Assembly: GCA_014695195.1 (NCBI GenBank)
Contig: JACJNW010000028.1
Span: 186,001 to 250,000, forward strand
DNA: 64,000 nucleotides
Source: Cyanobacteria bacterium FACHB-DQ100
Lineage (GTDB): Bacteria > Cyanobacteriota > Cyanobacteriia > Leptolyngbyales > Leptolyngbyaceae
Reading direction: 5' to 3'
Shown here piece by piece: positions 4,595 through 31,754 of the stretch; position 1 is the stretch's first letter, and every line of letters begins with the position of its first letter. A program made the position numbers and the translations under genes. The notes under the pieces are model-generated. The model saw nothing but the letters and a program-made list of their open reading frames with translations. It made no database searches and was not told where the DNA came from.

Positions 4595-4696
4595 TAAACA
4601 CGACAGAAATGCTTCACTTCATTACAAATTACAAAGGATGAATCCCTAAGTGCTTTAAGATCGGCTTAATGGTTGCCGACGTTTAGGACAATTGTT

Positions 4697-9322: not shown

Positions 9323-9471
9323 CTTTTCTCTGAGCTACCACAATTTAGAGTTTTAACGATTTTGAACATTTAAGGGTTTCTTCACAGTCTTCCATAGCTC
9401 TGATTGCTCCCTAATCTTTTACTTCAGGTAACTATACGGTGGTAAAAGTAATCAACTTGTAGCGAGATGTG

Positions 9472-9630
9472 ATACCAAATTGATTTTTGAGTGCTACAGA
9501 TCTTGGAAGCCCCCTAAATCCCCCACGTGTGGGGGACTTCAAGCCAAATCTGTTTCGGATTCTCAAAGTCCCCCAGTATGGGGGATTTAGGGGGCGAAGG
9601 ATCTGTCGCATTAATAAATTGATTCGGTAT
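9472..9630. mobile_element. MITE-like element, family A, full-length copy
   Basis: A 159-bp element bounded by imperfect terminal inverted repeats. The left end reads ATACCAAATTGATTTTTGAG...CTACAGATC, and the right end inverted reads ATACCGAATCAATTTATTAA...CGACAGATC. Inside are two G/C-rich inverted cores, CCCCCTAAATCCCCCA...TGGGGGACTT and AAGTCCCCCA...TGGGGGATTTAGGGGGC. It has no coding potential of its own. It fills most of the 393-bp spacer between menB and the oxidase fragment; nothing else was seen in that spacer. Small apparent reading frames through it are repeat translations. Confidence 0.8.
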
Positions 9631-9715
9631 GAAATGACTAGGATGGAATTGTTGAGTCATTCAACCTGAATCTGTCGAGTCTGGCAGATTCTGTAAGTGA
9701 GTTTGTTGGGAGACT

Positions 9716-10030
9716 GTGAGAATGATTCGTTTGTTAGTTGGTATTTTGGCGTTCGTGATTAATCAGGTCTATATCAATTACTACCGAGATGGCAATCTGT
9801 ATATGTTTGATGAGTTCCAAGCCAGCAGAAAGCCTGAAGAGCGCCGTCCCAAGATCGACAATTTGTATGATGTCTTCATGGCAATTCGAGATGATGAATC
9901 AGAGCACGTTAAAACCATGATTGCCCGTCAGCACCCTGATGCACAATTGATGCTACAAAGTCCGCATACGGCTTGCGCGATCGGGGGCACTGCATCCAAT
10001 GAAACCAACGATGAAGCTTTTGCTGCTTAA
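9716..10030 (+). pseudogene. C-terminal fragment of a plastoquinol terminal oxidase (PTOX/AOX family)
   Basis: The 104-residue reading frame starts GTG at 9716. From about residue 20 it reads INYYRDGNLYMFDEFQ, then RRPKIDNLYDVFMAIRDDESEHVKTM. This is the last part of the di-iron alternative oxidase/PTOX family, including the final ExxH iron-ligand motif (ESEH). The first three-quarters of the normal protein, including the other E and ExxH ligands, is missing, and the first ~18 residues (hydrophobic MRMIRLLVGILAFVINQ) do not resemble the family. An active di-iron site is therefore impossible. The left break lies 85 bp after the MITE at 9472-9630, suggesting a deletion associated with the element. 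Identity is strong; the mechanism is inferred. Confidence 0.85.
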
Positions 10031-10221
10031 CTTCAGGGCAGAGCTTCGCTGACACTAGCAGACTGTGAACAAACTATTTCCTTAACGATCGTCTGCATTG
10101 CTGCTAGCGTTACTTTTCAGCTTTTGAATGTGTTGCTTGCTAAGTATCTGCCGGAAGACGAGGACGGCGGTGAACTTTCTCCAGACGGTCGGGTGCTGGA
10201 AATGTTGAGTGAACACACCTT

Positions 10222-10323
10222 ATACCGAATTAAACATAGAATGCGACAGATCATACTCAAAGTCCCCCATTCTGGGGGATTTAGGGGGCGAGAATCTGTC
10301 GCATCCACAAATCAATCTGGTAT
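10222..10323. mobile_element. MITE-like element, family A, short copy
   Basis: A 102-bp element. Its ends are ATACCGAATTAAACATAGAATGC on the left and, inverted, ATACCAGATTGATTTGTGGATG on the right; both lead into CGACAGAT. It contains one core only (AAAGTCCCCCAT...GGGGGATTTAGGGGGCG). Compared with the 159-bp copy it lacks one internal core. The upstream stretch 10124-10221 is open ([24 protein letters not shown]...) but matches no family I know. It may be a gene remnant interrupted by the element. The rest of the 10031-10394 spacer shows nothing else. Confidence 0.78.
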
Positions 10324-10394
10324 TAGAAGGCTGGCTCCTCACAGGGCGGCATGGATTCTTCTCAACCTAGGAAGCATTCGTTCATGTGATTGAT

Positions 10395-10901
10395 TCAATT
10401 TAACGTGAGCTTCACGTCCTCAGTTAAATCCTCAGTTTTGCCTGTCGTTGCCGCCTTGACAAAGCCATAAGCTTTCGCAACCCAACCCGCAGGAGCATCC
10501 CAGTATTCTGCTTTCGTCGCACTCACTTTTAGCAAAGCAATATCAGGCTCATCGAGTTCTTTGGGAAACCAAGCTTTGAGTTCTGGTGTCCAAAGTTCTT
10601 CCATTTTGGCGCGATCGCGCACCAGTTCCGCCGTTCCTGAGAGCGACACATAGCGCTGTTTGTCTGGAGCAGAGAAGCTAACATTCACCTGATGATGGTG
10701 ATTCACTTCAGTGACTTTGTGCGAACTCGCATAGGTAAAAAACCAGAGATCACCATTGGCTTCGACTTCACTATTGACAGACATGGGGCGACTGCGAAGG
10801 CTGCCATCGTCATCGATCGTGGTTAACATACAGAAGTTAATGTCCTTGATGATGTCGCGCAGCTTTTGTAAAGACTGATCAGAGTCGGTTGCAAGCGTCA
10901 T
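10395..10901 (-). CDS. Pyridoxamine 5'-phosphate oxidase-family (general stress protein 26-like) flavin-binding protein
   Basis: A 168-residue split-barrel protein. Motifs are FCMLTTIDDDGSLRSRPM, GDLWFFTYASSHKV, QVNVSFSAPDKQRYVSLSGTAEL and the C-terminal VSATKAEYWDAPAG, typical of the GS26-like branch that binds FMN, FAD or haem-type cofactors. It is too short and too divergent to be biosynthetic PdxH. It stands alone in reverse orientation between the MITE patch and the subtilase locus. The substrate is unknown. Confidence 0.88.
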   Translation of the reverse strand: MTLATDSDQSLQKLRDIIKDINFCMLTTIDDDGSLRSRPMSVNSEVEANGDLWFFTYASSHKVTEVNHHHQVNVSFSAPDKQRYVSLSGTAELVRDRAKMEELWTPELKAWFPKELDEPDIALLKVSATKAEYWDAPAGWVAKAYGFVKAATTGKTEDLTEDVKLTLN

Positions 10902-10987
10902 TTTGTTGGTTCCTTCTTAGCATCATTTCTCACAATGCCGTAATCGAAAGATTTTTTCTCAAACCTTTAGAGAGGAGTTTGGCTCTA

Positions 10988-11059
10988 TCAATTGGCAGAG
11001 GTTGCGTTGAGATCGCTAGTTTTGGCTAAATACTGAGCAGCTTCTTGAAGCTTCGACAT
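10988..11059 (-). CDS. Possible 23-residue small ORF
   Basis: MSKLQEAAQYLAKTSDLNAT... is preceded by GGAGAAAG with about 5 nt to the ATG, a good ribosome site. There is no homolog I recognise. It could be a leader peptide, a remnant, or chance. It is reported because it is the only ORF with a strong Shine-Dalgarno in the 10902-11281 spacer. Confidence 0.22.
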   Translation of the reverse strand: MSKLQEAAQYLAKTSDLNATSAN

Positions 11060-11080
11060 CTTACTTTCTCCACAAAGATA

Positions 11081-11106
11081 TGTTTGCAGTGACGTGTTTG
11101 CAGTGA
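11081..11106. promoter_or_regulatory. Tandem 12-bp direct repeat upstream of the subtilase locus
   Basis: TGTTTGCAGTGA occurs twice with a 2-nt spacer (14-nt period), about 175 bp before the start of the first gene of the 11.3-19.8 kb cluster. It resembles a paired binding site for a regulator. No regulator is known. Confidence 0.4.
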
Positions 11107-11281
11107 GTAACCTAACAGTATCCAGAGGCTTGAGAAGCTGACAGAATATGCTTGTATTTGGCTATCTGCAACAGTACCCGCGTGGGTGATGCCAGAGCAA
11201 CTCTCGATCAGCCACTTTAGATGCAGTTGAAGCAAGCGAACTGCTCACTATTGACCGAATCCCTGCTAGGAGGTCACTGGA

Positions 11282-11923
11282 ATGGAAACCACAATTCCTA
11301 TTTCCATCATGATCGTTGGGCATCCATTGCTTGAATCAGTAACGGTGGCATGGTCGGCGAACACTGGCATGGTTCCGAAAGCGCTTTCTTTTCCATCAGA
11401 AGGAGGGACGACGGAAGCTGAACTGACAAGCGAGAATCCTGCGATCGCTAGGATTCATTGTCAAGCTCAAGTGAACTTTGCCATCGCAAATTGGGAGGTC
11501 ATTCACTGGGACGTGAGCCAATCGGTGCAACAGGGCGGCGATCGTATTGTGATTGATCCGGGACAGTGGATTCAATCTCTCAATCTGCAATTTGAGGTTG
11601 CAGCCATTGAGACAATGGATTCAGTTGAAAGTGTTAATCGCAATCATTTGGTGGTTAACCTAAATTGGCAGTCTCCTCATCTTTCCCGTCCTGTCAAACT
11701 CTCACACCGACTGACACCCAATCAGAGCTGGGACGTGCCGTATCTGCTATTTCCTGAAGAACAGACAGTCTTTACCATTACTGCATTTGGTGTTGTCAAT
11801 CAGCGCTTGGTGAAGATGTTGGCTCAGTCGCTTGAGGTTATGCGATCGCAAAAGCTCCCTTCAACATTGATCTTGCTTGCCAAAGATCAAGAGCTTCAAC
11901 TGTTCGATGCAATGTCTGTATAA
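11282..11923 (+). CDS. Beta-rich protein of the subtilase locus (small carrier of the shared domain)
   Basis: A 213-residue protein of unknown function, with a strong ribosome site (AGGAGGT at 11269-11275). It has no signal peptide, TM helix or cysteine cluster. Nearly the whole protein appears homologous to a domain in the two larger neighbours. The pattern is an ESVTVAWSA strand, ARIHCQAQVNFAIANWEV, RIVIDPGQWIQSLNLQF, a later LVVNLNWQSP, then FTITAFGVVNQRLV. Corresponding stretches in the 674-residue protein are KSVALSCSA, RINYQAQIDFNNAKFPI, ITIKPSARLGRVNIYLY and TFSAMGVIGTKLV. Predicted beta-sandwich. It is the first gene of a four-gene same-strand cluster (48 bp to the next gene). Confidence 0.75.
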   Translation: METTIPISIMIVGHPLLESVTVAWSANTGMVPKALSFPSEGGTTEAELTSENPAIARIHCQAQVNFAIANWEVIHWDVSQSVQQGGDRIVIDPGQWIQSLNLQFEVAAIETMDSVESVNRNHLVVNLNWQSPHLSRPVKLSHRLTPNQSWDVPYLLFPEEQTVFTITAFGVVNQRLVKMLAQSLEVMRSQKLPSTLILLAKDQELQLFDAMSV

Positions 11924-11971
11924 AGTCGCTTCGTTTTAGATACTTTACTTACCACAAACCCAGGAGGTTTT

Positions 11972-13996
11972 ATGGTCTCTAGCCTGTCTTCTCAATATTG
12001 CGTTGCTTTGTCTGGTCAGAAATGGGATGTCGGTAACTTCACGCTTTGGCAAAGCTCAGATGATGATGTCATTCTGTTCAGTCCCAAACAAGCAACCCTG
12101 GCGCGAGATTTTAGAACGGGACGCTATCAAGCTGCAATTAGCCAATTTCGAGTGCAGAAAGATGGAGCTTACAAAACTGTTGGAGGTGGCGCACTCTTTA
12201 CGCTCTCGACAGGGATTGAATTTGATGCAGATACCTATAAGCAAATCGAACAGCAATGGCGTGAGGAAGTTGTTAAATCAGGACGCTCTAAGTCGACCAA
12301 TCCTCGCTTTGTTCCCTTGGTCACTCGCAAAGGAACAGTGGAATTGTTGATTCCTGAAGTGATTGGTAAAGCGAGCCAATCGACGATCGACAACAAAGAA
12401 TTCGGCGTGATTGGTTCTAAGGTGTCTTTGCTGGCAAACTTGACGGCTGAAGGGGCGCAAGCCTTGGCGCAAGCTGTTCGGAATCGGGAGAATACACCGA
12501 TCGGTGCAATGGTACGGTATGAGTATCTGCAATCGATTCCAGAGTGTATTGTCGAAGTGGATGTGAATGGAAGCCGTGTGTTTAAGCATCTGTCCGCTCA
12601 GTTGAAAGCGAGCTACGACGGATGGTTCTACGGTGGCAGCATCGACTTGCAAGCACAATGGGAAAGCATGGTGCGGAATGGTGCCATTTCTGTAAAAGTG
12701 CAAGGCTTGGATAAGTTGCCAGATGGCATGGAGGAAGTCAAACAAAATCTGCTGAATACCTTTATTGATCAGGCATTTAAGAACTTCTTCCCGATGCTGT
12801 TTGAGAAAAAACCAGATGTTAAACCTGCTGAGGCGGGTAACACTTCTGGATGGTTTGGCGGTGCCAATTTCGCGCTGAAATGGCGGAAAGAGTCCGACGT
12901 GACCAATCTTTCCTTGAAGATGGAGTTTAACGGTTTCTCCTGGCTGAAAGGGGCAATGGATACAGGCGCAACGTTCCTTTCTGAGTTGGATGCAAGCTAT
13001 CTCAATGAAGTGAACACCGAGCTAACCTTCCCGTTACTTCTGAGTGTTTCTCCTGATGAGATGGTGAAGTCGGTTGCACTGTCTTGTTCTGCAATGGAAG
13101 ATGGTCGTCCGGTAATGATTCCGGCTTCTGATGTGTTTGGTGCGGATGTTACTTCTAAGCAATATCTACTCACCAGTCAAAAGCCTGATAAAGTGCGGAT
13201 TAACTATCAGGCACAAATTGACTTCAACAATGCGAAGTTTCCAATCATCACCGAGAAGGGTTCGACCACGGGGGCGCAGCCTTCTATCACCATCAAACCG
13301 TCTGCTCGTCTGGGTCGAGTGAATATCTATCTCTACACCTTTGACAGCGACAATCAGATTAACTTAATGCCGGGTGACAAGGATGAATTAGTAGTTAACG
13401 TTTCGGTTGCAGGAACACATCTGAAGAATCCGATCAAGGAATCTGCTCGGATTAAGCCGTTCCCGAATGGAGAACCGATTACATTCACGTATCCAATGCC
13501 CCTTGATGGCACTCAGCCAGTCGTCACCTTCAGTGCAATGGGAGTGATTGGCACTAAGTTAGTCCGCGCCAAAGAACAACCGATTACTTTAACCGAAGAG
13601 TCAATCTTCATCGTGGTGGATAAGAACGGGGTGCGACTGATTTCTAAAGAAGCTGACTTGCCCGAAAGCGATCCGATCGCCGATCGCCTCCTCACAGCAG
13701 GAACCAATCCAGTGATTCACCTGAGCGAATCTGAGAACAAAGAGCCTGAGTCTGAAAAGACCGAACCCAACGGTAATGGAAACGGGAACAAAAAAGCGAT
13801 CGCTGGAACATTAACCGCAGTGGAGTACGGCAAATTTGGTCCAGCACTGTGGATCGAGGAACTCAGCGGCAGCAAGCAGCGCGTCATGCTGCATGATGTG
13901 GAAGAAGCTGATCCGTTTGATGATGAAGGTCGCAAGAAGGTCAAAGTTCTGGTCGATGAAACGGGTTACGCAGAATCGATCGTCATTGAACTGTAA
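11972..13996 (+). CDS. Large multi-domain beta-rich protein of the subtilase locus
   Basis: A 674-residue protein of unknown function, with a clear AGGAGG ribosome site 5-6 nt before the ATG. The N-terminal half (~16-215) begins VGNFTLWQ and contains SKVSLLANLTAEGAQALAQAV; the same order (VGNFLLWA, ATFLLELSEIGTQIWRQAL) is seen in the 624-residue neighbour. Residues ~366-553 carry the domain shared with the 213-residue protein. A charged linker (~583-605, rich in E, S, N, G and K) leads to a small C-terminal beta domain (KKAIAGTLTAVEYGKFGPALWI...). It lacks an export signal. The architecture suggests a structural or binding protein, not a classical enzyme. Confidence 0.75.
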   Translation: MVSSLSSQYCVALSGQKWDVGNFTLWQSSDDDVILFSPKQATLARDFRTGRYQAAISQFRVQKDGAYKTVGGGALFTLSTGIEFDADTYKQIEQQWREEVVKSGRSKSTNPRFVPLVTRKGTVELLIPEVIGKASQSTIDNKEFGVIGSKVSLLANLTAEGAQALAQAVRNRENTPIGAMVRYEYLQSIPECIVEVDVNGSRVFKHLSAQLKASYDGWFYGGSIDLQAQWESMVRNGAISVKVQGLDKLPDGMEEVKQNLLNTFIDQAFKNFFPMLFEKKPDVKPAEAGNTSGWFGGANFALKWRKESDVTNLSLKMEFNGFSWLKGAMDTGATFLSELDASYLNEVNTELTFPLLLSVSPDEMVKSVALSCSAMEDGRPVMIPASDVFGADVTSKQYLLTSQKPDKVRINYQAQIDFNNAKFPIITEKGSTTGAQPSITIKPSARLGRVNIYLYTFDSDNQINLMPGDKDELVVNVSVAGTHLKNPIKESARIKPFPNGEPITFTYPMPLDGTQPVVTFSAMGVIGTKLVRAKEQPITLTEESIFIVVDKNGVRLISKEADLPESDPIADRLLTAGTNPVIHLSESENKEPESEKTEPNGNGNGNKKAIAGTLTAVEYGKFGPALWIEELSGSKQRVMLHDVEEADPFDDEGRKKVKVLVDETGYAESIVIEL

Positions 13997-14008
13997 TCCA
14001 TAACTGGT

Positions 14009-14038
14009 GTGGATGAAAGAATTGCTTCTTTCATCCAC
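14009..14038. promoter_or_regulatory. Perfect 13-bp intercistronic hairpin before the subtilase gene
   Basis: GTGGATGAAAGAA - TTGC - TTCTTTCATCCAC, a perfect 13-bp stem with a tetraloop. It starts 13 bp after the upstream stop and ends 28 bp before the ATG at 14067. There is no T-tract, so it is more likely an RNA-processing or stability element, or an attenuator, than a terminator. Its presence argues that the subtilase starts at 14067, not at the upstream GTG at 14007. Confidence 0.7.
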
Positions 14039-14066
14039 GCCCTTGAGAATAAATGGTGAGCAACCT

Positions 14067-17000
14067 ATGTCTGATGAACGAACAGTCTTAGTTCCTTCAA
14101 ACTGCGAAATTCTCAGTCATGCGAGTACCGAGATTTTGCATACCTATCGCAACGGTGAAGTCTTAGTCCGAACTGCCGCACCGATCGATTCAACAGAAAC
14201 CTTAATCAATTCGGGTGTGTGTTTAGACAGTCGTTTAGACGGTCAAACTAATCGTCTCCTCGAATCTAGTCGATCGCCCTTAGACGCATTCAGCGATCGT
14301 GACATTATCACTGCCTATCTTGAATTAATTGGTCCGCTTGATCCAGATTGGTTATTGATTCTTCAACAATTAGAAATCGAATTACTTCAATTTCAGCCTG
14401 AACATAGCTTTTTGAGCCGAGGTTCTGTCCAAGCTTTTCGGCAGGCATTGAAGCAATATTTTGTGATAGGTGTTGTGCCGATCAGCGCTGAAACGAAGCC
14501 TCAACCGCCAGCACCCGAAAGCGGAGAAGAAGAGGTTTGGATTGTTGTGCAGGATCAGCCCGATCGCACTGCTCTGATTCAAGAACTCAATTCGATTCCT
14601 GAGGTTTCAATTGATCCAAATCAGCCGATCGAGAGTGTTGGATTTTATCTACGTCTGCGGGGTCGGGTTTCTGCTCAAGGACAAGCCGCTCTACTCCAGC
14701 ATCCTCATGTGTTGGCTGTAGAACCTTACAGTCCTGTGCAGCCTGAAGACGAAGTGGCAGGACTGATTTTGGCGGGACAATACAACAGTTTGGGACAACC
14801 TCAAGGATCATATCTGCGATGGTTGGAAGATCATGGCATCAATGGTGCAGGAGTCACGATCGGAATTGTAGATGCAGGGGTTGAAGCAAACCATCCCGCA
14901 TTTACGGGGCGAATTAAGCAACTGAATCCTGATCGCAAATCCTGGCACGGTACGTTTGTGGCGGGTCATGCCGCAGGATGTTATCTAGAAGAAAAAGATA
15001 GCAATCAATTTATCTATGGATTAGGCATGGCTCCCAAAGCGGAGATACTCATTCAAGATAACCAATCGACTCCGATCGCACTCTGTCGCGAAACCGTTAC
15101 CGAGAAAAGCCCATCCGGTCAAATCGGGAGCATCCAGAATAATTCCTGGGGCGCGGGAACTAAAAATCCAATGGATTATGGCTCACAGGAGGCAACCTAC
15201 GATCGTTTAGTCCGCAATGCTGATCCAGATAGTGCGATCGCAAAACCCTTAAACATCTGTTTTTCGGCAGGTAACTCTGGTATCAATGGTTTAACTCGCC
15301 CAAAAGCTGCAAAAAATATCATTGTCACAGGAAATTCAGAAAACTATCGTCCCGCTACTGGCAAAGAACAAAGCGACAGCATCGATCAGCTTTATCAAGG
15401 TCCGCGAGGCAGCAGTTATGGTAATTGTGGGGATGGTCGCATTGCACCGCATCTCGTCGCACCCGGAGAATGGACAGCTTCTGCAAACTATGATTCTAAT
15501 CCGGGCGATCGTGAATATATCAGTTCACAGTTAACTTGGGGAAGCGGCACGTCTGCGGCAAGTCCTAAAACGGCTGGAGCGTGCGCCCTTTTGATTCAAT
15601 GGTGGCGACAACATCACTACAATCAAGACCCATCGCCTGCGCTGCTAAAAGCGATGTTAGTTAATGGTGCTGAACCTTTGAAAGCAGGTGGATTTATCCC
15701 CAATATGCAGCAAGGCTGGGGCAGACTGAACTTAGAGAATGTACTGCGTCCAGATGTTCAACGCATCTATATTGATCAATCTATCCGACTGAAGCAGCGC
15801 GGCGACAATCAGACCTGGAAAATTCGAGTTGCAAATCCGAATCTTCCAGTGAAAGTAACCCTATGCTGGACTGATCCACCAGGAGCATTAGGAACTGGAA
15901 CAAGCACTGCTTCTGCGATCGTCAATAAGTTAGCTTTACGATTAGAAGCAAACGGCGAAACCTATCGAGGCAACCAATTCCAAAATGGATGGTCTTATCA
16001 GGATGGAAGTCGCGATCGTGAAGGGTGGGATAATCTACAAAATATTTTTCTAGCGCCCGGAACTGCAACAGGCACGTTACAGGTCACAGTGACTGCACTG
16101 GAAATTACAACGAATTGCCTCACTGGGAAAATTGATATTCCGCAGCAAGACTTTGCTTTAGTGATTAGCAATGCAACGATCGAGACTGACCAGACTAGCG
16201 TCTTCGTGAGTGTCGATCCAAATACAAACACTCAAACTAAGCCTAAAGATTCAGGAGATTATTGGGCAGGAAGAAACCAAGATCGCCAAAGCGTAGACTA
16301 TGACTGGTGGCAGAAGATTGACAACAATACTAAACCCAAGCCAAAACCTGCAACCCAACAGCAGATCGAAGCTTGGTGGATGAGAGAGGATATTGGATCA
16401 TCTAAGCCGGAAAGCGATCGCGCACTTCCGCCTGCGATCGTCGAATCTTTAGAAGCAAGCATCACGGTCGTTACAGCAGATCAATCGCATCAGATTGTGA
16501 TGGCAAATCGAACCGAATCAGAAAGCAGTCGGACGAACTCATCAGAAGGGCTTGTGACCATGGGAGGTGGCAAAATTGCTGAAAGCACAAAGGATATTAC
16601 TTCACTCCTTCAGTATCCAGTCGATCTAAGCCGTGCATTGCTTCAATTGATGCAGAATTGGACTCAGTTCGGCTCACTTCAGCAGAAGCAAGTTGCAGTT
16701 CTACTGGTCGGAGCAGGAACACGAGTCACCGCAGATGACCTTTTCGCATTACGACGACTCGCACAGTTAGGACAACTCTATCTAATTTCAACAGATGCTC
16801 AGTTGCTATCGTTTCTAGTACAACGGGTACATTACTCTCCTAATCTATTCTGTCGTCTTGCAAAAGATGAGAATGCTTTACCCACTTTACTGCGTGATAC
16901 GATCGTCGAAGCCAGTGGAGGACAGCAATGTGAGATCGAGATGAATTCCATTGTGATTGAGAACAATTGGCTCAGTTACTACAGCTTCAACGTTACACAT

Positions 17001-17891
17001 CTCGATCGTCATCTAACAATCCGATTGCAATTCCCACTTCAGCAAGCGCTACCTAAAATCGCACTTTACCGACCTGGACAAGAGACGATCGAACTCTCCT
17101 CCAGCATTTCAGGCATTCAGGTCACATCGGGTGAGGATTTTTTACAGATAGATTGCGATCGCTCATCTATCAGCGCAGGAGCATGGAAATTGCTGCTCCA
17201 ACAAGCGACACCCGATGATACTTACCGGATTAGAGTTTGGGCATGGACTGATCTCGGTATTTCCATCGACCAAAAAACGCTAAGTGTCTCTGATCAGGAA
17301 CTTGAGTTTCTTATGACGGTTCGGGGTGGTGAGGGAATTACATTCCATCGGCTACAAGGACAACCTCGATTGATTCAGGAAACCACAAGCTCTCGTGAAG
17401 TAGAGTCCGATCGTTTCATCGAAGCAACTGCGATCGCGCCACGGGAAGGACAGCGGCAACCTGAGTCGAGCCGCACCGTTAATGCAGCAGAATTGGGAAC
17501 TGTGATCCGGGTGATGCCCTCTCAGCCAGGAGCCATTGCTCTGGATGTCCCGATGTGGGTTGAAGGCACAGATCCGCAGGGCGTTCAATTCACACGGTTA
17601 ATTCGCCAGAGTTTGCTTCATCTTGAATCTCGATCGCAGTGGCGACAGCGCCTTGTAGAAGCAGCGGAACTCTTTTTCACGTCAGCCCGAATGATTGGTG
17701 TAGAGCGAGAAGCGGAAGCCATTGTTCGCTTAAAGCTTCAGCGCAGCGATCGCACTCGATGGGTTTCTGTTACTTCACCTTCTCTCAGAACTCAATTGGA
17801 GTGGATTTTAAAGCAATCTTGGTCTACGCAGGAATGTTTAGTAGGCATTACAGGTGATGAATTGTTCGGACTCTATCGGGCTTTGAAATAA
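14067..17891 (+). CDS. Giant subtilase (S8 family) with KP-43-like barrel and additional C-terminal domains
   Basis: A 1274-residue serine protease. Residues ~160-245 look like an I9-type propeptide-like domain (EEVWIVVQDQPDRTALIQEL...). The S8 core has the catalytic Asp269 (GIVDAGVE), His294 (SWHGTFVAGH), the oxyanion Asn in FSAGNSG, and Ser496 (GSGTSAASPKTAG). After it comes a jelly-roll domain (VKVTLCWTDPPGA ... FALVISNA) of the kind following KP-43-type proteases. A charged linker with two short DWW/AWW motifs leads to ~850-960, which resembles a degenerate vWA-like fold (KQVAVLLVGAGTRV ... LYLIST). Further beta domains fill the C-terminus. No signal peptide is visible, so action may be intracellular or activation-triggered. 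ATG at 14067 has GGTGAG upstream. Confidence 0.85.
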   Translation: MSDERTVLVPSNCEILSHASTEILHTYRNGEVLVRTAAPIDSTETLINSGVCLDSRLDGQTNRLLESSRSPLDAFSDRDIITAYLELIGPLDPDWLLILQQLEIELLQFQPEHSFLSRGSVQAFRQALKQYFVIGVVPISAETKPQPPAPESGEEEVWIVVQDQPDRTALIQELNSIPEVSIDPNQPIESVGFYLRLRGRVSAQGQAALLQHPHVLAVEPYSPVQPEDEVAGLILAGQYNSLGQPQGSYLRWLEDHGINGAGVTIGIVDAGVEANHPAFTGRIKQLNPDRKSWHGTFVAGHAAGCYLEEKDSNQFIYGLGMAPKAEILIQDNQSTPIALCRETVTEKSPSGQIGSIQNNSWGAGTKNPMDYGSQEATYDRLVRNADPDSAIAKPLNICFSAGNSGINGLTRPKAAKNIIVTGNSENYRPATGKEQSDSIDQLYQGPRGSSYGNCGDGRIAPHLVAPGEWTASANYDSNPGDREYISSQLTWGSGTSAASPKTAGACALLIQWWRQHHYNQDPSPALLKAMLVNGAEPLKAGGFIPNMQQGWGRLNLENVLRPDVQRIYIDQSIRLKQRGDNQTWKIRVANPNLPVKVTLCWTDPPGALGTGTSTASAIVNKLALRLEANGETYRGNQFQNGWSYQDGSRDREGWDNLQNIFLAPGTATGTLQVTVTALEITTNCLTGKIDIPQQDFALVISNATIETDQTSVFVSVDPNTNTQTKPKDSGDYWAGRNQDRQSVDYDWWQKIDNNTKPKPKPATQQQIEAWWMREDIGSSKPESDRALPPAIVESLEASITVVTADQSHQIVMANRTESESSRTNSSEGLVTMGGGKIAESTKDITSLLQYPVDLSRALLQLMQNWTQFGSLQQKQVAVLLVGAGTRVTADDLFALRRLAQLGQLYLISTDAQLLSFLVQRVHYSPNLFCRLAKDENALPTLLRDTIVEASGGQQCEIEMNSIVIENNWLSYYSFNVTHLDRHLTIRLQFPLQQALPKIALYRPGQETIELSSSISGIQVTSGEDFLQIDCDRSSISAGAWKLLLQQATPDDTYRIRVWAWTDLGISIDQKTLSVSDQELEFLMTVRGGEGITFHRLQGQPRLIQETTSSREVESDRFIEATAIAPREGQRQPESSRTVNAAELGTVIRVMPSQPGAIALDVPMWVEGTDPQGVQFTRLIRQSLLHLESRSQWRQRLVEAAELFFTSARMIGVEREAEAIVRLKLQRSDRTRWVSVTSPSLRTQLEWILKQSWSTQECLVGITGDELFGLYRALK

Positions 17892-17915
17892 AACACACTA
17901 CTTTTGGATAAACCT

Positions 17916-19790
17916 ATGTTGAAGAACGGCTCACTTACAGAATCAGACTGGATTGCTTATCTTTCAGAAAACCTAACGTCTTCGGATACTGTTCCGACAG
18001 AAGGCGATCGTCCATCTCCGATGCTTGATCGAATTGCTGTCGATAGAATTTCTCCTGTTTTGAGCAAACCGATTACTGAAGTAGTCACATCTCCGATTTC
18101 ATCGGGACTGATCAAAGATCGGTTCCGCGAAGGAATCATTGATCGATCGGTGTTGACCGACTTAACAACAGCAAATCTGGCTAAGTCTAATTTAGCGATT
18201 CAAGCGAAGCCAGAATGGACAGTGGCGGCTCAGCAAGTCTATCGGCAAGTTCCACCTGTTCCAATGCTCGGTGATCCCATCCAAGTTGGAAATTTTCTAC
18301 TCTGGGCTGACCCGCAAGCAGACACCATTGAGGTCAAATTACCGGAGCGATTTGTTCAACTTGATCCACGCTACATTAAGCCTTTGCCAAAACCAATCTT
18401 AATCGACCAACGAATCAATCCCGTCGATCGCATCATTGCTCCCCCAATGCTGACTGCGAATCTACCAACAATGGTCGATCGAGCAACAATGATCGATCGC
18501 GTCGTTCTCCGTCCCGATATCATCGATGCGCTTAAAGTTCAGAAAGTTAGAGTTCCAGCCCGGCGTGCTTTTTTTACAACCGTTGCACCAGAGCTTCAAT
18601 CCTTCCGATTGATGGTGCAACAAGGTCAACCCGGACAAGCCACAGTCGGCACAGCGCTATTAACCGTTAGTCTGTACACGAAAGATTCAGCAGAACTCTT
18701 AGAAACCCATCGATTGAAGTGGACAGATGCCCTAACTCAAGCAGGCTATGGCGCTCGAATCTGGAAATTTCTGCCGATTAATTTACAGCAACTTCAACCC
18801 TTTCTGGATATTGATGCTCAACAGTTACGATCGCCCATTCAAGTTTCCACCAATGCAGGTGCAGGTACAGCAACCTTTTTACTGGAACTTTCTGAGATTG
18901 GAACTCAGATTTGGAGACAAGCGTTAGAACGCCGTCAGCCTGAGCAGATCACTGGAGTTGCAAGATTTACGGCTAAGTTCTATGCCCGCACCGACGATCG
19001 CCTACAAATCCGGGAGCAGAACTTCTCTGCGACTTTAGCAACCTTACTCTCTGGTTGCGGTTCAGAACATATCGAAGTCCTCAATCCGACCTTAGCCTTA
19101 ACGACTTCAATTCTTGCCCAGCGACACGCCTTTGTAGACTCAACGACTGTAATTTGGGATATCGATCGATCTGAACACAGTTTTTCCGGCACTGAGGATG
19201 GAGTTTTAACGGGTGTGATTACAACAGACAATTTAGAAGGGGTACAGGTCAACTGGAAAGCACAAGTGAAGTATCGTTTCTCAAGCTGGTCGATCGGAGT
19301 TCAGCAAGGGAAACTATCTTTGCGAAACTCAATCGGAATTATTAAACCAGGCTCAACTGAATGGATTCGAGAATTCACGGTTTACACAGTGATGATGGCA
19401 AGCCCGACACAAGTTGCAACGGATCTCATTGATTTTGAAGACCTCGAAGTAGAAGCGGTTCTAACCTTTAACGCGGATTATCTCACTCTGCCACTCGCCA
19501 CAACATTCAAACCTCGACATCTAGATGTTACAGAAGTTCCCTTTCCCGTCCAACCCGGACAGGCACCCAAGCAGGTTGGAATTACAGTCGTCGTGCGCTC
19601 GAAGTCCAGCGATCGCATCCTAGCCGCTCCTCCCCCTCGAATCTTGGCTCCTTCGTCCTCTTTAATCAATCTCAAAGTCTTTCGGGATGGCACGATCGAT
19701 GTGGTCACAAACATCGATCCAATTTCAGAAAGCTCGATCGATGGCGATCTATTCGATTTGGTTCACAACCTCAAAGCATCCGATAACTAA
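17916..19790 (+). CDS. Second large carrier of the shared beta domains in the subtilase locus
   Basis: A 624-residue protein of unknown function; ATG at 17916, 24 bp after the subtilase stop. The N-terminus (1-170) is rich in I-D-R and P-K/P-L repeats and probably disordered, partly encoded by GATCG words. Residues ~120-400 match the N-terminal half of the 674-residue protein (VGNFLLWA; GTALLTVSLYTKD; ATFLLELSEIGTQIWRQALE). Residues ~408-600 carry the shared C-terminal domain (STTVIWDIDRS; VQVNWKAQVKYRFSSWSI; IGIIKPGSTEWIREFTVY; a final VVVRSKSSDRILA). It has no export signal or membrane segment. It ends the same-strand cluster and is convergent with two NTPase genes. Confidence 0.73.
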   Translation: MLKNGSLTESDWIAYLSENLTSSDTVPTEGDRPSPMLDRIAVDRISPVLSKPITEVVTSPISSGLIKDRFREGIIDRSVLTDLTTANLAKSNLAIQAKPEWTVAAQQVYRQVPPVPMLGDPIQVGNFLLWADPQADTIEVKLPERFVQLDPRYIKPLPKPILIDQRINPVDRIIAPPMLTANLPTMVDRATMIDRVVLRPDIIDALKVQKVRVPARRAFFTTVAPELQSFRLMVQQGQPGQATVGTALLTVSLYTKDSAELLETHRLKWTDALTQAGYGARIWKFLPINLQQLQPFLDIDAQQLRSPIQVSTNAGAGTATFLLELSEIGTQIWRQALERRQPEQITGVARFTAKFYARTDDRLQIREQNFSATLATLLSGCGSEHIEVLNPTLALTTSILAQRHAFVDSTTVIWDIDRSEHSFSGTEDGVLTGVITTDNLEGVQVNWKAQVKYRFSSWSIGVQQGKLSLRNSIGIIKPGSTEWIREFTVYTVMMASPTQVATDLIDFEDLEVEAVLTFNADYLTLPLATTFKPRHLDVTEVPFPVQPGQAPKQVGITVVVRSKSSDRILAAPPPRILAPSSSLINLKVFRDGTIDVVTNIDPISESSIDGDLFDLVHNLKASDN

Positions 19791-19798
19791 AATTTGAC

Positions 19799-19838
19799 AG
19801 CAGTTTGAATGATAAGCGCTCTGCATCTTCAAACTGCT
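19799..19838. terminator. Hairpin between convergent subtilase-locus operons
   Basis: AGCAGTTTGAA (19799-19809) pairs perfectly with TTCAAACTGCT (19828-19838), an 11-bp stem with an 18-nt loop, between the stop at 19790 and the convergent stop at 19890. There is no T-run on either side, so termination would be weak or Rho-assisted. Confidence 0.4.
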
Positions 19839-19889
19839 CGACGATACACTCAGGACTGCTCGGTGGAACATTCAAAGTCTCTCCCGAAC

Positions 19890-21833
19890 TTACTGCTTCT
19901 CATTCTCATTCTGGTGGGAGATTGTTGCACTGACTGAATCCACAAAATCAGTTACCGCTTGCACCAGTGACTTGGGTAAGTGATTACGGAACCATTGATA
20001 CATATACAGCAAGGTTAAACCATTCACTTTCTTCTGGGTAAATAGCTCCTCCTGCAAATCATTCAAATGCTCTAGAGCGCGATGTCTCACTTCTTTTGGA
20101 GCTTCTGCACTCACTTGAGCGCGGAGCTGCTTGAAGTTCTGCTGCAATGAACTGAGATCCGATCGATCCGAAGAAAGCGCCGCGATCGAGGAAATGTAGC
20201 TGCCATTCATGCTCGTAATCGGAAGCACTTTCAGGCGTTCAACGAACTGCTCTTCCCGTCGAATCTGATCGAGTAAGCGCTTTACCTGAGCATTGTTCGG
20301 TTCAATCGCATACGCTTCTTCGAGCTGCGCGATCGCTTCATCGTTTTCACCTAAGTTGTGCAGTTCTTCAGCATAGTCATACAACGCTTCAACATAGTTA
20401 TCTTGCACCCGTACTGCATCGACTAGGTAAGCTCTGCGGTAATGTCTTAAAGCCTGGGGAAACTCTCGCAGCTCTATCAAGCTATCTGCAAGCTCAAACA
20501 ATGCTTCAAAGTGATTCGGATTGTGTCTGAGCGATTCATTTAACAAGCTAACAATCCTTGGCGTTGTGCCCCGACGACGCGCCGCTTTTGCCGTTTCGTA
20601 CAAGGTTTTTGCTTTGACATCCAAATCCTCTAGTTCGCGTAGTTCACGGCGGATCGGATGACGTTGCACCAGCCAACGACGCACCAGTTCGATCGACACG
20701 CGATAGGTTGCAACGCTAGGTGGCATCGAAGTGCGACGGACTCCGATCCCAGAGCGGCTTCCAGTCGTCCGAAGAAATCGCCAATCGACCAGATTGATCA
20801 CTCCATTGCGAATCGGCTCCGTGAGTTCAACTCCGCATTCGCGCAACAGTTCTAGCGACTCAGCTTCGCTAAAATCTAAGCTTGAGAGTTCTGGGTACTG
20901 CAATTGACGAGCGCGAGGCACTTCCGCCGCCGCAGAAAATACAACTCGTTCCGGTAGGGGAATCCCTTCCCAAAACCAGCCCAAGCCGCCTTCTCCAAGC
21001 TCGATTGCCCGATCGACATTTGCTCTGACATCCGAGCGCGTGACTCGCCAGCAATTCTCACTCCGGGCATGAGTAAACAGCGTGAAGCAGATCACCTGAG
21101 TAAAGTAGGGATGTCCTGCAGATAGCTCTAAAATGGCATCGATCGCCTCTAAGTCATACTCCAAAATCCCTTTTGCTGGAACTGTGACCAATTGTTCTGC
21201 ACTTTGACGATCGAGCAATCCCACTTCCTGGTTGGGTGCTTCTCGAAACAAACTCAGCATCGCGGGTAAATCATCTAATTGCCGCCCAACCACCGGAATT
21301 AAATAAAGATGCGGATAGTCATACACTCCCGCTTGCAGAAAGTGAAACAGATTTCCTGCCGCTTGATCAACCGTTCGATTGTAAAGCGCGTCAAATTCGT
21401 CTAAGAGCAGCACCACATTCTCAACGGCTAACTCTCGTCGCAGATTCGGGATAAACTGCCGCAAAAATAGACTCGGATCACGCTGAAACTCCTCGATCGT
21501 CGGGATTTCCATGTGCTCCTTAAGACAATCAAACTGCTGCACCGCATCCCGCGCTAACTCATAAACCACTTCACCGATCGATTTGCGGCTATCTCCTTCG
21601 AGCGACAAGAGAACAAACGCAAACTGCGGCAGGTTAACCGATCGTGGAATTTGCGCTAAGACCGACGACTTGCCGATGCGTCGCTGTCCGTGCAGCAAAA
21701 TCACCTGCGCTCCCTGAAGCAAATTGTCTGTGATGAACTCAAATAAACGATCGCGCCCAAAAAAGCAGTTGGGTTCGGCGATCGGACGACCGATAATGTA
21801 TGGATTTCTGCGTTGCTCGATTAAGTAGCTCAT
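19890..21833 (-). CDS. STAND-type P-loop NTPase with TPR repeats
   Basis: A 647-residue protein. The N-terminal block RNPYIIGRPI...FFGRDRLFEF leads to Walker A at 49-57 (GQRRIGKSS) and Walker B at 140-149 (VVLLLDEFDA), as in AAA/STAND NTPases. A winged-helix-like region and HPYFTQVI motif follow near 260. Residues ~400-550 form tetratricopeptide-type repeats (HFEALFELADSLIELREFPQALRHYRRAY; NYVEALYDYAEELHNLGENDEAIAQLEEAY). The C-terminus is helical. STAND NTPases are switch proteins that oligomerise on sensing a partner. It is 31 bp downstream of the related NTPase gene and convergent with the subtilase cluster. A sensor or regulator role is inference. Confidence 0.85.
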   Translation of the reverse strand: MSYLIEQRRNPYIIGRPIAEPNCFFGRDRLFEFITDNLLQGAQVILLHGQRRIGKSSVLAQIPRSVNLPQFAFVLLSLEGDSRKSIGEVVYELARDAVQQFDCLKEHMEIPTIEEFQRDPSLFLRQFIPNLRRELAVENVVLLLDEFDALYNRTVDQAAGNLFHFLQAGVYDYPHLYLIPVVGRQLDDLPAMLSLFREAPNQEVGLLDRQSAEQLVTVPAKGILEYDLEAIDAILELSAGHPYFTQVICFTLFTHARSENCWRVTRSDVRANVDRAIELGEGGLGWFWEGIPLPERVVFSAAAEVPRARQLQYPELSSLDFSEAESLELLRECGVELTEPIRNGVINLVDWRFLRTTGSRSGIGVRRTSMPPSVATYRVSIELVRRWLVQRHPIRRELRELEDLDVKAKTLYETAKAARRRGTTPRIVSLLNESLRHNPNHFEALFELADSLIELREFPQALRHYRRAYLVDAVRVQDNYVEALYDYAEELHNLGENDEAIAQLEEAYAIEPNNAQVKRLLDQIRREEQFVERLKVLPITSMNGSYISSIAALSSDRSDLSSLQQNFKQLRAQVSAEAPKEVRHRALEHLNDLQEELFTQKKVNGLTLLYMYQWFRNHLPKSLVQAVTDFVDSVSATISHQNENEKQ

Positions 21834-21864
21834 AGCAGCAATTCGCTTAACCCGCTTTTGATTA

Positions 21865-23163
21865 TCACAAGATCAATCCGGTGGATAGGGCAGCAGTAAT
21901 TTTTCCTAACCAGGTCAGAATAGTCGGCACCTCGTCTTTGTTTTGCCACAGCCAGCGAATTGCGTTTGTGACCGTTTCCGCTTGCCGACGGCTCATCAGA
22001 TTGAGAAAGGTGCGCTGTCTCGCTTGCAGTGCTTCTTCGTCACTGTTTTCGATCTCCTTAATCACCCACCATTCCATCAGCGAGGACGCAAAGCGATAAT
22101 ACTTTTTGCCTTCTTGAAATTGACAGAGGACGATCCCGCGTTCTTCGAGATCCCTTAATTCTCGCTCTTTTTGACTAAAGATTACATCCGTATCACCCAA
22201 GTCATAACGTTTCTTCAGTAACCGCCCTTTGAGGTGAGTCAGAGCGAGCAGCATCATCAAGCTTTGCTCGATTTCACTGGAGAAGTTCCAGTTGTCCTCG
22301 AAGTAGTGTTCGGTGGCGCGACGAAATTCCGCAACAAAAGCATTGGGATCGGGCAGGCGATTGGCGCGAAATTCTCGGAATAAAAGGTAGCCCGCAACTT
22401 GCAGGAGCGTTGGACTGCCATCGGCAATGTCTCGAATGCCTTCTTTGATCGCGGGCGTGAGCGGCAATCCGCCTAAAAGTGCGGCTGCCTCAGTTTCACT
22501 AAACGGTTTGAGCGGCTGAAAGAGGTAATGGTTATACCAGGGGGATTCATTTGGCTTGAGTTTGATCCCGGCTTCATTCAGGCGACGCAGTGAAGTGACA
22601 ATGCTGGCAAGATGCTGGCTTTCTTTTGAGTGGGAGGCAAGATTGCGACAATCATTGAGGAAGTCAGCCGCATCTTGTTCGCTGTAGTCCTCAGTCGGCT
22701 GAAGCGCGACATCATAATCATCAATCAACAGCAGCAAAAATTTCTCTTTCTTGCCCAACAGCCGCAGAATCGATCGCAGCGCATCTTTACTCGCTGTAAG
22801 CCGCTCCAGGTGGCGATCGACTTCGGTTTGAATTTCCGGTTCATCGGTCAGGGCATCTTTCAGAATGAGAAAAACTTCTCGCCAGAAATTTGCCGCCGTA
22901 AATGGCGTAACTCCCAAGCAACTGAGCAGCACAATCACCGCTTTTGACGGATCGTGTCCCCGAAATGCCCAAGTCTGCGGAGCCGCGATCATTTGGAGAA
23001 AGGAGGTTTTGCCGATCCCAGACCCACCCCAAACTGCCAGATGTCCCCGAATGAGAATTTGGTCGAATGCAGTTTCGATCTCGTTACCGCGCCCGATAAA
23101 GGCGAGCGGCGACACAGGTTTACCAGGCACATAGGGATTTCGTAAAAATGGGGAATCGGTCAT
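21865..23163 (-). CDS. STAND/AAA-type P-loop NTPase, paralogous to its neighbour
   Basis: A 432-residue protein. The N-terminus RNPYVPGKPVSPLAFIGRG mirrors the RNPYIIGRPI...FFGRD of the downstream NTPase, indicating common descent. Walker A is GGSGIGKTS at 46-54; Walker B is FLLLLIDDYD near 145. A winged-helix-like segment follows (SPTLLQVAGYLLFREF; ELRDLEERGIVLC). The C-terminal tail ends with a hydrophobic stretch (WLGKITAALSTGLIL) that might contact a membrane. There are no TPRs. It is the first gene of a two-gene unit, and a family B repeat element occupies its upstream spacer. Confidence 0.83.
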   Translation of the reverse strand: MTDSPFLRNPYVPGKPVSPLAFIGRGNEIETAFDQILIRGHLAVWGGSGIGKTSFLQMIAAPQTWAFRGHDPSKAVIVLLSCLGVTPFTAANFWREVFLILKDALTDEPEIQTEVDRHLERLTASKDALRSILRLLGKKEKFLLLLIDDYDVALQPTEDYSEQDAADFLNDCRNLASHSKESQHLASIVTSLRRLNEAGIKLKPNESPWYNHYLFQPLKPFSETEAAALLGGLPLTPAIKEGIRDIADGSPTLLQVAGYLLFREFRANRLPDPNAFVAEFRRATEHYFEDNWNFSSEIEQSLMMLLALTHLKGRLLKKRYDLGDTDVIFSQKERELRDLEERGIVLCQFQEGKKYYRFASSLMEWWVIKEIENSDEEALQARQRTFLNLMSRRQAETVTNAIRWLWQNKDEVPTILTWLGKITAALSTGLIL

Positions 23164-23185
23164 GGCAATATCTAGGGGCGATCGT

Positions 23186-23362
23186 CGATAGCAATCCTAA
23201 GCGAGAGTCTTTCGTGCCCTTATCCCCAGCCCTTCTCCCCCAGGGAGAAGGGAGCTAGAATTCTTGTCCCCTCTCCCTGAGGGAGAGGGTGAGGGTGAGG
23301 GTTGACACGCTAGGCTTTCACAAATTTATAGCTTTCACAAATCAATGAGGATTTTTATAGCT
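23186..23362. mobile_element. MITE-like element, family B, long copy
   Basis: A ~177-bp non-coding element. The left end (ATAGCAATCCTAAGCGAGAG) and the inverted right end (GCTATAAAAATCCTCATTGA) form imperfect terminal repeats. Inside are two G/C-rich hairpins: CCCTTCTCCC-CCA-GGGAGAAGGG at ~23231, and CCCTCTCCCTGAGGGAGAGGG at ~23271 followed by TGAGGG repeats. GCTTTCACAAAT occurs twice near the right end. It lies between the NTPase start and the metF stop. It shares ends and core with the 54502-54627 element. Confidence 0.7.
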
Positions 23363-23394
23363 CGATCGTAGCGACGATCCCCAAAATCTGCGAC

Positions 23395-24351
23395 CTATAC
23401 GTTAACCACTTCAACCCGGGGCTTCTCGATCGCTTTGATCCCCGCCAAATCAAGAATTTCTGGGATCAAGTCTTCGCGTTTGACTGCCATCATGTGAACA
23501 CCCTCACACAACTCTTTTGCCAGCTTCACTTGTTCCGCCGCGATCAGCATTCCTTCTCGGAGGGGGTCAGCCGCTTTTTCTAGGCGATCGATAATATGCT
23601 CTGGAATATTTACACCCGGAACGGCGCGATTGATAAATCTGGCATTTTTAGCAGATTTGAGTAAGAAGATTCCTGCAAGCACAGGTTTACCGCAGTTTGA
23701 GGCAATCTGAGTCATAAATTTTTCCAAGCGGTCGAAATCGGTAATTAACTGACTTTGGAAAAACTGTGCGCCTGCTTCGACCTTGCGCTCAAATCGCTTT
23801 TGCAAACCTGACCAACTGCCACACTGCGGATCAACTGCCGCACCCACGAATAAATCAGTTTCACCATCGCTTAGCGCTCGATCGTTCCAGTCCAACCCGC
23901 CATTCAGCTTGCCGATCATCTGCAACAACCGCACCGATTCCAGCTCGAACACTGCTTTTGCGTCAGGATGATCGCCAGCTTTGACCGGATCACCTGTAAG
24001 CGCCAGCACATTCCGAATGCCCAAGGCATGAGCGCCGAGCAAATCGGCTTGTAAACCGATCGCATTACGATCGCGGCAAGCGACTTGATAAATCGGCTCG
24101 ATTCCCTGCTGCAGCAAGAGCGCCGCCGAAACCAGCGACGACATTCGCATCACCGCCCGACTACCATCGGTAATATTCACACCATGCACCCGTCCTTTGA
24201 GCAACTGCGCCATTTGCAGCATATGCGTCGGATTAGTCCCCTTGGGGGGTGCGACTTCTGCGGTGACGAGGAATTCGCCTTTTTTGGCGGCAGTGCGAAG
24301 AGCAGATAGAGGGGCGTGACCAAGGAAATTCGAGAATTGCGGATAGGTCAT
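23395..24351 (-). CDS. metF: Methylenetetrahydrofolate reductase (MetF-like)
   Basis: A TIM-barrel flavoprotein that reduces 5,10-methylene-THF to 5-methyl-THF for methionine synthesis. The 318-residue protein shows FLVTAEVAPPKGTNP, VHGVNITDGSRAVMRMSS, the conserved LALTGDPVKAGDHP and GAQFFQSQLITDFDRLEKF. It is a catalytic domain only, without the eukaryotic regulatory domain. It is a single gene with 129 bp to the trpS stop upstream. Confidence 0.92.
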   Translation of the reverse strand: MTYPQFSNFLGHAPLSALRTAAKKGEFLVTAEVAPPKGTNPTHMLQMAQLLKGRVHGVNITDGSRAVMRMSSLVSAALLLQQGIEPIYQVACRDRNAIGLQADLLGAHALGIRNVLALTGDPVKAGDHPDAKAVFELESVRLLQMIGKLNGGLDWNDRALSDGETDLFVGAAVDPQCGSWSGLQKRFERKVEAGAQFFQSQLITDFDRLEKFMTQIASNCGKPVLAGIFLLKSAKNARFINRAVPGVNIPEHIIDRLEKAADPLREGMLIAAEQVKLAKELCEGVHMMAVKREDLIPEILDLAGIKAIEKPRVEVVNV

Positions 24352-24480
24352 GAGCGATCGTTAGGGTGCGACTTCTTGATTTAGCGTATCGGGGGAGATT
24401 GAGAATTTTGAAGTCACTTGCCGAAACCTTTAGAAAAAGCAGTGAATTCAGAAGAAATTCGTGAAGTTACGGTTGATCTG

Positions 24481-25491: not shown

Positions 25492-25547
25492 ACCGTTTGT
25501 CAAATCGCCTGTGATTTTCTCTTTTGCCCATCATAGATGAGAGGCGA

Positions 25548-31642: not shown

Positions 31643-31754
31643 CGACTGGCGGGGGCAGATAGAAAGACAATCTATAGTTACCACACCCGCGAATCTCTAG
31701 TGCAAAGAATTTGACAGAATCTATCAATTGATCGCGGTCATTCTATTGATATCC

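What the first reader, a model, noticed from the sequence alone, without database searches (positions are those of the whole stretch)
11282..23163. Unassigned six-gene locus: subtilase, three beta-domain carriers and two STAND NTPases
Four same-strand genes (213, 674, 1274 and 624 residues) lie close together and converge on a pair of paralogous STAND NTPases (647 and 432 residues). The beta-domain proteins share domains with one another, and the subtilase sits between two of them. None of these proteins has an export signal. A giant protease with inferred regulator NTPases and scaffold-like partners resembles sensor-effector layouts in defence or regulated-death systems, but no named system I know has this set. 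The functional link between the two convergent units is inference.
Basis: partly seen in the sequence, partly recalled or inferred. Interest (0 to 1): 0.8.

Follow-up and report, generated by a model that had tools for sequence, protein, structure and literature searches.

The report
Mobile protease-and-carrier gene module
Four of the six genes form a self-contained cassette, a large protein-cutting enzyme with three related helper proteins of an unnamed family, with relatives on plasmids of distant bacteria, while the two neighbouring ATPase genes are separate chromosomal genes that merely lie next to it.

Summary
The g5-g6 ATPase pair is strong in 18 of 42 genomes of the order. In 11 of these whose neighbourhoods I read, g6-g5 stands without g1-g4. 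Conversely, g1-g4 occurs with 48/78/63/59% identity, same order, in a family member without any g5 or g6 match. So g1-g4 is the unit.

g1, g2 and g4 are paralogues of a carrier family without a name in Pfam, NCBIfam, PHROGs or PADLOC: g1 is the C-terminal domain alone, g4 has both parts, g2 adds an insertion. g3 is a KP-43-type subtilase with its catalytic residues intact. On an alphaproteobacterial plasmid g2 is 41% identical, and g3 and g4 are fused in one 1827-residue protein with two peptidoglycan-binding domains. On a Streptomyces plasmid a g2-like part is fused to a papain instead, beside a chagasin-type inhibitor gene.

Best reading: a rare, mobile protease-on-carrier cassette, probably acting at a cell envelope. 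Target and release route are unproven.

The parts
11282..11923 (+). g1: stand-alone copy of the ~200-residue carrier C-terminal domain
   Evidence: BLAST to g2 350-538 E 3.7e-15 and to g4 E 1.8e-7; domain alignment; 48% identical copy in G391; fastest evolving of the six, dN/dS 0.30
11972..13996 (+). g2: full carrier (N-terminal part, insertion, C-terminal domain, tail)
   Evidence: 78% identical in G391, 41% over the full length in an Indioceanicola plasmid; collinear with part of a Streptomyces papain-family protein
12545..12961 (+). approximate insertion of g2 that g4 lacks
   Evidence: mostly unaligned stretch in the g2-g4 profile comparison
13016..13654 (+). carrier C-terminal domain inside g2 (residues 349-561)
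   Evidence: hmmsearch with the shared-domain profile (this sequence was in the profile)
14067..17891 (+). g3: 1274-residue subtilase with N-terminal region (propeptide-like by recall), S8 domain, beta barrel and C-terminal region
   Evidence: Pfam Peptidase_S8 E 4.3e-30; profile to KP-43 1wmd E 1.1e-42 over profile positions 253-678
14844..15722 (+). g3 S8 catalytic domain (residues 260-552); D269, H294, N403, S496
   Evidence: Pfam boundaries; the four residues, assigned from recalled family motifs, are invariant in A9, which includes the alphaproteobacterial copy
16620..16913 (+). tentative vWA-like half domain of g3 (residues 852-949)
   Evidence: low-confidence model, block pLDDT 50-72 here; Foldseek matches include a vWA structure (4fx5) among unrelated ones, none reaching E 0.001
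16974..17216 (+). approximate P-domain-like region of g3
   Evidence: read from alignment A9 opposite the Indioceanicola stretch that passes Pfam P_proprotein by 0.4 bit; no hit in the window's own copy
17916..19790 (+). g4: carrier without the insertion; its homologue is fused to the protease in Indioceanicola
   Evidence: profile match to g2 98.2%, E 3.5e-14; fusion
19089..19721 (+). carrier C-terminal domain inside g4 (residues 392-602)
   Evidence: hmmsearch with the shared-domain profile (this sequence was in the profile)
19890..21833 (-). g5: AAA/STAND-like ATPase with TPRs; judged NOT part of the module
   Evidence: present without g1-g4 in the order
21865..23163 (-). g6: AAA/nSTAND1-like ATPase; judged NOT part of the module
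   Evidence: present without g1-g4 in the order

Best explanation
g1-g4 is a self-contained, horizontally mobile protease-carrier module, and g5-g6 is a separate chromosomal ATPase pair beside it. Shown by sequence: a KP-43-type subtilase with intact catalytic residues, kept together with three paralogous carrier proteins; the g4 homologue joined to the protease as one polypeptide in an alphaproteobacterium; a g2-like part fused to a papain-type protease in Streptomyces. Inferred: g2 and g4 (with g1 as a variable single-domain subunit) assemble with the protease and present or target it; the protease is made as a zymogen that removes its own N-terminal region; its C-terminal domains, or the peptidoglycan-binding domains in the alphaproteobacterial version, hold it at a cell envelope. 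As no signal peptide is visible, release by lysis or by an unrecognised export route is assumed.
For: Same gene order and strand in three cyanobacterial genomes, two of them congeneric and one in another genus with different flanks. Full-length g2 at 41%, and g3 residues 5-643 at 53%, in a conjugative Indioceanicola plasmid. There g3, two PG_binding_1 domains and a g4 homologue are one protein, followed by a gene for another PG-binding protein with a TIGR02594 domain. A Streptomyces plasmid protein matches g2 23-390 (tblastn E 1e-12), and by profile about 23-550 (98.4%, E 8.9e-15), before a Peptidase_C1 domain; after it come genes for an I42 inhibitor, a protein related to its own C-terminal carrier region, and a PG-binding protein. 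Purifying selection on all four genes. NTPase independence.
Against: No folds were obtained for the carriers (g2 model pLDDT 33), so 'carrier' is a role inferred from fusions. The cyanobacterial copies have no PG-binding domain, so envelope action rests on relatives. No export route was identified. Only three cyanobacterial and two plasmid loci support the module, and the Indioceanicola locus has no separate g1. In the Streptomyces protein the match is firm only up to about g2 residue 400: the shared C-domain profile scores the C1 and stand-alone Streptomyces proteins no better than shuffled sequences, gives 0.9% with the C1 region alone and 0.3% with the stand-alone proteins, and only 26.7% (E 7e-4) with all three combined; a reversed control gave 0.2%. 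In 2 of the 3 cyanobacterial genomes the module does sit next to g5-g6.
Confidence: 0.55

Rival explanations
1. g1-g4 alone is an intracellular defence or regulated-death module: the carriers sense an invader and release the subtilase inside the cell.
For: No clear export signal; rare and patchy in cyanobacteria, plasmid-borne elsewhere, as for many defence systems; g3 matches the generic 'subtilase' PADLOC profile (E 2.8e-20).
Against: g1, g2 and g4 match nothing in PADLOC at E 1; the IetS match of g3 is only 16.9 bits. Of ten flanking window proteins tested two match PADLOC profiles: 6100-6768 (PDC-S03 models) and a caspase-like protein about 10 kb away. KP-43 enzymes are known as secreted (recalled), and the plasmid relatives carry or neighbour PG-binding domains.
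Confidence: 0.22
2. An ordinary degradative or nutritional protease with accessory proteins.
For: KP-43-type subtilases are usually extracellular degradative enzymes (recalled); catalytic residues intact.
Against: Three paralogous carriers, fusion to one of them, and another protease class in Streptomyces are more than a simple scavenging enzyme needs; no signal peptide seen.
Confidence: 0.13
3. One reading: one six-gene sensor-effector system in which the two NTPases control the subtilase.
For: Adjacent and convergent in the window and in FACHB-63; NTPase-peptidase pairings, including S8 peptidases and STAND components, occur in described conflict systems (PMC7159879, passages seen).
Against: g5-g6 without g1-g4 in 11 of 11 neighbourhoods read; g1-g4 without any g5 or g6 match in G391; no significant g5 or g6 match among the ORFs around the two plasmid relatives.
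Confidence: 0.06
4. Cargo of a contractile injection system.
For: No signal peptide; phage-sheath family matches in 29 of 42 genomes of the order, including the window genome and G405.
Against: G391, which has g1-g4, has no sheath match.
Confidence: 0.04

Closest known systems
KP-43 / SubHal-type alkaline subtilases (PDB 1wmd, 5fax)
   Same: Catalytic domain and following beta barrel match over profile positions 253-678 of g3 (E 1.1e-42 and 3.5e-41).
   Different: g3 has about 600 further C-terminal residues, lacks a visible signal peptide and lies in a gene row with three carrier paralogues.
Streptomyces canus plasmid C1-family peptidase with adjacent I42 inhibitor (NZ_CP107732.1)
   Same: g2-like part before the protease, a separate protein related to its C-terminal carrier region, and a PG-binding protein gene nearby.
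   Different: The protease is a papain, fused C-terminally to the g2-like part, with a separate chagasin-type inhibitor gene.
ietAS (AAA ATPase plus subtilase antiphage pair; system recalled)
   Same: A subtilase beside an ATPase gene.
   Different: The IetS profile scores 16.9 bits, best stretch 42 residues, and the ATPases here are not linked to the subtilase.
Multi-peptidase, NTP-dependent conflict systems of Kaur et al. 2020 (PMC7159879; passages seen)
   Same: S8 peptidase domains and STAND NTPases occur in one described type; peptidoglycan-directed effectors are mentioned.
   Different: The type seen in the passages is built around NucA, trypsin and EAD1 components; none was reported for the six proteins in Pfam.

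Membership tests
KP-43-type subtilase (S8) | S8 catalytic domain with D/H/S triad | tested here: met
   Peptidase_S8 105.4 bits; D269, H294, S496 (assigned from recalled motifs) and N403 invariant
KP-43-type subtilase (S8) | beta-barrel domain directly after the catalytic domain | tested here: met
   profile match to 1wmd spans profile positions 253-678
KP-43-type subtilase (S8) | secretion signal | tested here: not met
   no hydrophobic N-terminus in the three cyanobacterial copies or the Indioceanicola copy of g3 (hydropathy only)
ietAS antiphage system | IetS-type subtilase | tested here: not met
   16.9 bits, best stretch 42 residues
ietAS antiphage system | partner ATPase inherited with it | tested here: not met
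   no g5 or g6 match in G391, which has g1-g4
STAND NTPase-regulated peptidase conflict system | NTPase inherited with the peptidase | tested here: not met
STAND NTPase-regulated peptidase conflict system | effector-associated adaptor domains (EADs) | tested here: inconclusive
   none reported by Pfam at E 1, but I do not know which EAD types Pfam covers
Contractile injection cargo | injection apparatus in every host genome | tested here: not met
   no sheath match in G391
Polymorphic toxin with immunity gene | inhibitor or immunity gene beside the toxin | tested here: inconclusive
   I42 inhibitor in the Streptomyces locus; none recognised beside g3

The most novel reading that the evidence does not exclude
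The carrier family defines a previously unnamed kind of mobile, modular protease weapon in which one carrier system is loaded with exchangeable protease heads (subtilase in cyanobacteria and Alphaproteobacteria, papain in Streptomyces) and aimed at cell envelopes by exchangeable binding domains, with g1-like single domains as fast-evolving specificity or control subunits.
Probability: 0.25. Interest if true: 0.75.

Novelty: new variant of a known kind. Interest (0 to 1): 0.5.

Why it matters
Three proteins of one domain family pass no curated cut-off in Pfam or NCBIfam and have no PADLOC or PHROGs match at E 1. The family can now be tied to proteases by two different fusions and to plasmids in two other phyla. 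If the reading holds, it names a protease-carrying arrangement that could be found by searching for the carrier instead of the protease, and it removes two ATPases from a set that would otherwise be studied together by mistake.

Tried and rejected
Structure prediction of g2 from two near-identical sequences gave pLDDT 33 and was not searched further. The g3 C-terminal model (pLDDT 40.5) gave no Foldseek match at E 0.001 or better; the best lines mix a pilus protein, a vWA protein, integrins, an NAD kinase and others, so vWA is only a hint.

PDB sequence searches with the g2 and g4 profiles found nothing useful (none; one hit at E 2.4). Viral contig scans with g2, A8 and A9 found no relative (they depend on a few short peptides), nor did phage records with the Indioceanicola g2. 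The genome-contig scan used six short peptides of g2; the G391 copy differs in all six, so the scan is blind to relatives at that distance and says little about the range outside close relatives. Whole genomes of other phyla could not be searched. The phylum searches scored only two or three candidates per genome, so 1 of 386 is a lower bound.

The Sinorhizobium protein was first taken as a possible carrier relative. It is related to the Streptomyces stand-alone protein (pairwise E 7e-88) and to the C-terminal carrier region of the C1 protein (6e-9), but not recognisably to g1/g2/g4: its profile score lies below several shuffled sequences.

Injection-system cargo was considered and weakened by G391. 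No Rfam family reaches its threshold in 9300-24000, and promoter- and terminator-like sites are fewer than in shuffles, so transcription units could not be drawn from them.

Literature searches gave no paper on this module judging by titles and abstract starts. Only passages of PMC7159879 were read. Absence from print is claimed for these searches only.

Full report
What is there. The window lies on contig C28 of a 5.5 Mb assembly. The phylum is taken from the title of its relative 'Cyanobacteria bacterium FACHB-63'. All six ORFs exist at the stated places and lengths. g1-g4 run in one direction with gaps of 48, 70 and 24 bases and converge on g5.

The NTPases are a separate unit. Profile searches of the 42 genomes held for the order found strong matches to g5 and to g6 in the same 18 genomes (E below 1e-60 for g5, below 1e-100 for g6). 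One search counts 38 of 42 genomes with a g5 match at E 0.001; the other 20 are weak, mostly in the TPR part. A search with the single g3 sequence matched 6 of 42 genomes: full-length or nearly so in three (window, G405, G391), partly in three (G414, G410, G409). Of the 18 genomes with g5 and g6, two have g1-g4 (window, G405). I read the neighbourhoods of 11 of the other 16 (G402, G403, G404, G407, G408, G289, G185, G412, G414, G396, G386): g6 and g5 are adjacent in 11 of 11, no ORF there matches g1-g4 at E 1e-10, an MTHFR-family gene (the window's 23395-24351, called metF here) lies on the g6 side in 7 of 11, in two of them with one ORF between, and trpS in 6 of 11. The other five (G406, G413, G390, G394, G395) were not fetched. 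G391 has g1-g4 and no g5 or g6 match at E 0.001. In G396 the g5 relative carries a protein kinase domain. So the pair has its own history, and the adjacency in the window looks like a matter of insertion site. Against this stands the fact that two of the three genomes with g1-g4 have both units side by side; these two are congeners, so this may be one event.

The four-gene unit. In G391 g1-g4 are 48, 78, 63 and 59% identical and sit between a FUSC-family transporter gene and a MerR-CbiC regulator gene with a P-type ATPase gene beyond, unlike the window's neighbours. Across the phylum it is rare: 1 of 386 genomes (the window's own) with g2 alone and again with profile A8; the 386 were drawn evenly from a larger group, and only two or three candidates were scored per genome. 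With the g3 profile, 6 of 386 genomes pass E 1e-15, and apart from the window these matches cover only the subtilase region (profile positions 254-674).

The carriers. g1, g2 and g4 have no match above the curated cut-offs in Pfam or NCBIfam and none in PADLOC or PHROGs at E 1. Weak Pfam lines (g1 LIM_bind E 0.01; g2 E 0.07 and 0.18) were taken as chance. They are paralogues: g1 aligns with residues 350-538 of g2 (27%, E 3.7e-15) and with g4 (E 1.8e-7), and g2 with g4 over 320 columns (98.2%, E 3.5e-14), g2 having an insertion of roughly 140 residues. g1 is the fastest evolving (48% identity to G391 against 78% for g2; dN/dS to FACHB-63 0.30 against 0.05).

The protease. g3 has a complete S8 domain and matches the KP-43 structure over catalytic and barrel domains. 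The residues that I assign, from recalled motifs, to the triad and the oxyanion site are invariant, also in the alphaproteobacterial copy. The first 250 residues look like propeptides; that is recalled from other precursors of this type and was not tested. The last 430 residues may hold a vWA-like half domain and a P-domain-like barrel; the support is a low-confidence model, sub-threshold Foldseek matches and one marginal Pfam hit in the Indioceanicola copy.

Relatives in other phyla. tblastn of g2 against 72,556 plasmid records gave two records. In Indioceanicola profundi (conjugative plasmid) g2 is 41% identical over its length, and the next gene encodes one protein with g3 residues 5-643 (53%; five other plasmid records matched only part of the subtilase region at 26-31%), two PG_binding_1 domains, the g3 C-terminal part and a g4 homologue. 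The following gene encodes a PG-binding protein with a TIGR02594 domain. ORFs that I read as transposase fragments lie on both sides (my reading). I see no stand-alone g1 there: g1 finds two places in that record, one in the g2 gene; the second is not listed, and I presume it is the fused protein, whose C-domain the shared profile finds. In Streptomyces canus a 1023-residue protein matches g2 23-390 (tblastn E 1e-12), by profile about 23-402 (hmmsearch) or 23-550 (hhalign 98.4%) (one-sequence comparisons), and then has a papain domain. After it come an I42 inhibitor gene, a protein related to its own C-terminal carrier region (pairwise E 2.4e-6) and a PG-binding protein. The link of that C-terminal region to the g1 domain is weak (0.9% alone, 26.7% combined; no better than shuffles). 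Fusion of g3 with g4 and of a g2-like part with a papain are two separate signs that carrier and protease work together.

Mechanism. I take the module to be a protease held by carriers: the zymogen processes itself, g4 and g2 bind it, g1 adds a variable domain, and surface-binding domains hold it at an envelope. The first link (protease with carrier) is supported by fusions and shared gene order; self-processing, the envelope site and release are inference. A missing signal peptide and the lack of a recognised exporter are the weakest points. An intracellular defence role remains possible at about one in five.

Context checks. Of ten flanking window proteins, two match PADLOC profiles: 6100-6768 (PDC-S03 and PDC-S17 models) and 32901-34655 (caspase). 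Injection-system cargo is disfavoured because G391 has no sheath match.

Novelty. Literature searches found no description of this set (listings and abstract starts seen, and passages of PMC7159879). I rate it a new variant of a known kind: the protease type is known; the carrier family and its use with two protease classes are not described in what I could search.

Noticed in passing
L011 (G414:C77:1-20000), 3920-18726: A 908-residue subtilase 26% identical to residues 2-708 of g3 lies among TIR-domain proteins (one with CHASE2, one with CD225, two with WD40 arrays) and a caspase-FGE protein.
   Followed up: partly
L056 (Sinorhizobium numidicum plasmid), 5566-18333: A 519-residue relative of the Streptomyces stand-alone protein, with its N-terminal domain duplicated, lies near a BTAD regulator and some 7 kb from a multiubiquitin-ThiF-DUF6527 gene set.
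   Followed up: partly
L068 7061-9844 (G396): The g5 relative has a Ser/Thr protein kinase domain after the ATPase and TPR parts.
   Followed up: no
window 19890-25503 and L059-L061, L064-L066: Order trpS, MTHFR-family gene, g6, g5 kept in six of eleven other neighbourhoods (one extra ORF in two); the function of this ATPase pair is unknown.
   Followed up: partly
L010 14381-17481; L054 1-4991: Two of the hosts keep the module near metal- or cation-related genes: a MerR-CbiC regulator and P-type ATPase in G391, a CusA/CzcA efflux set in Indioceanicola. Possibly chance.
   Followed up: no
window 32901-34655: A 584-residue protein matching PADLOC 'caspase' (E 4.3e-14).
   Followed up: no
window 26633-31684: A 1683-residue TamB-family protein.
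   Followed up: no
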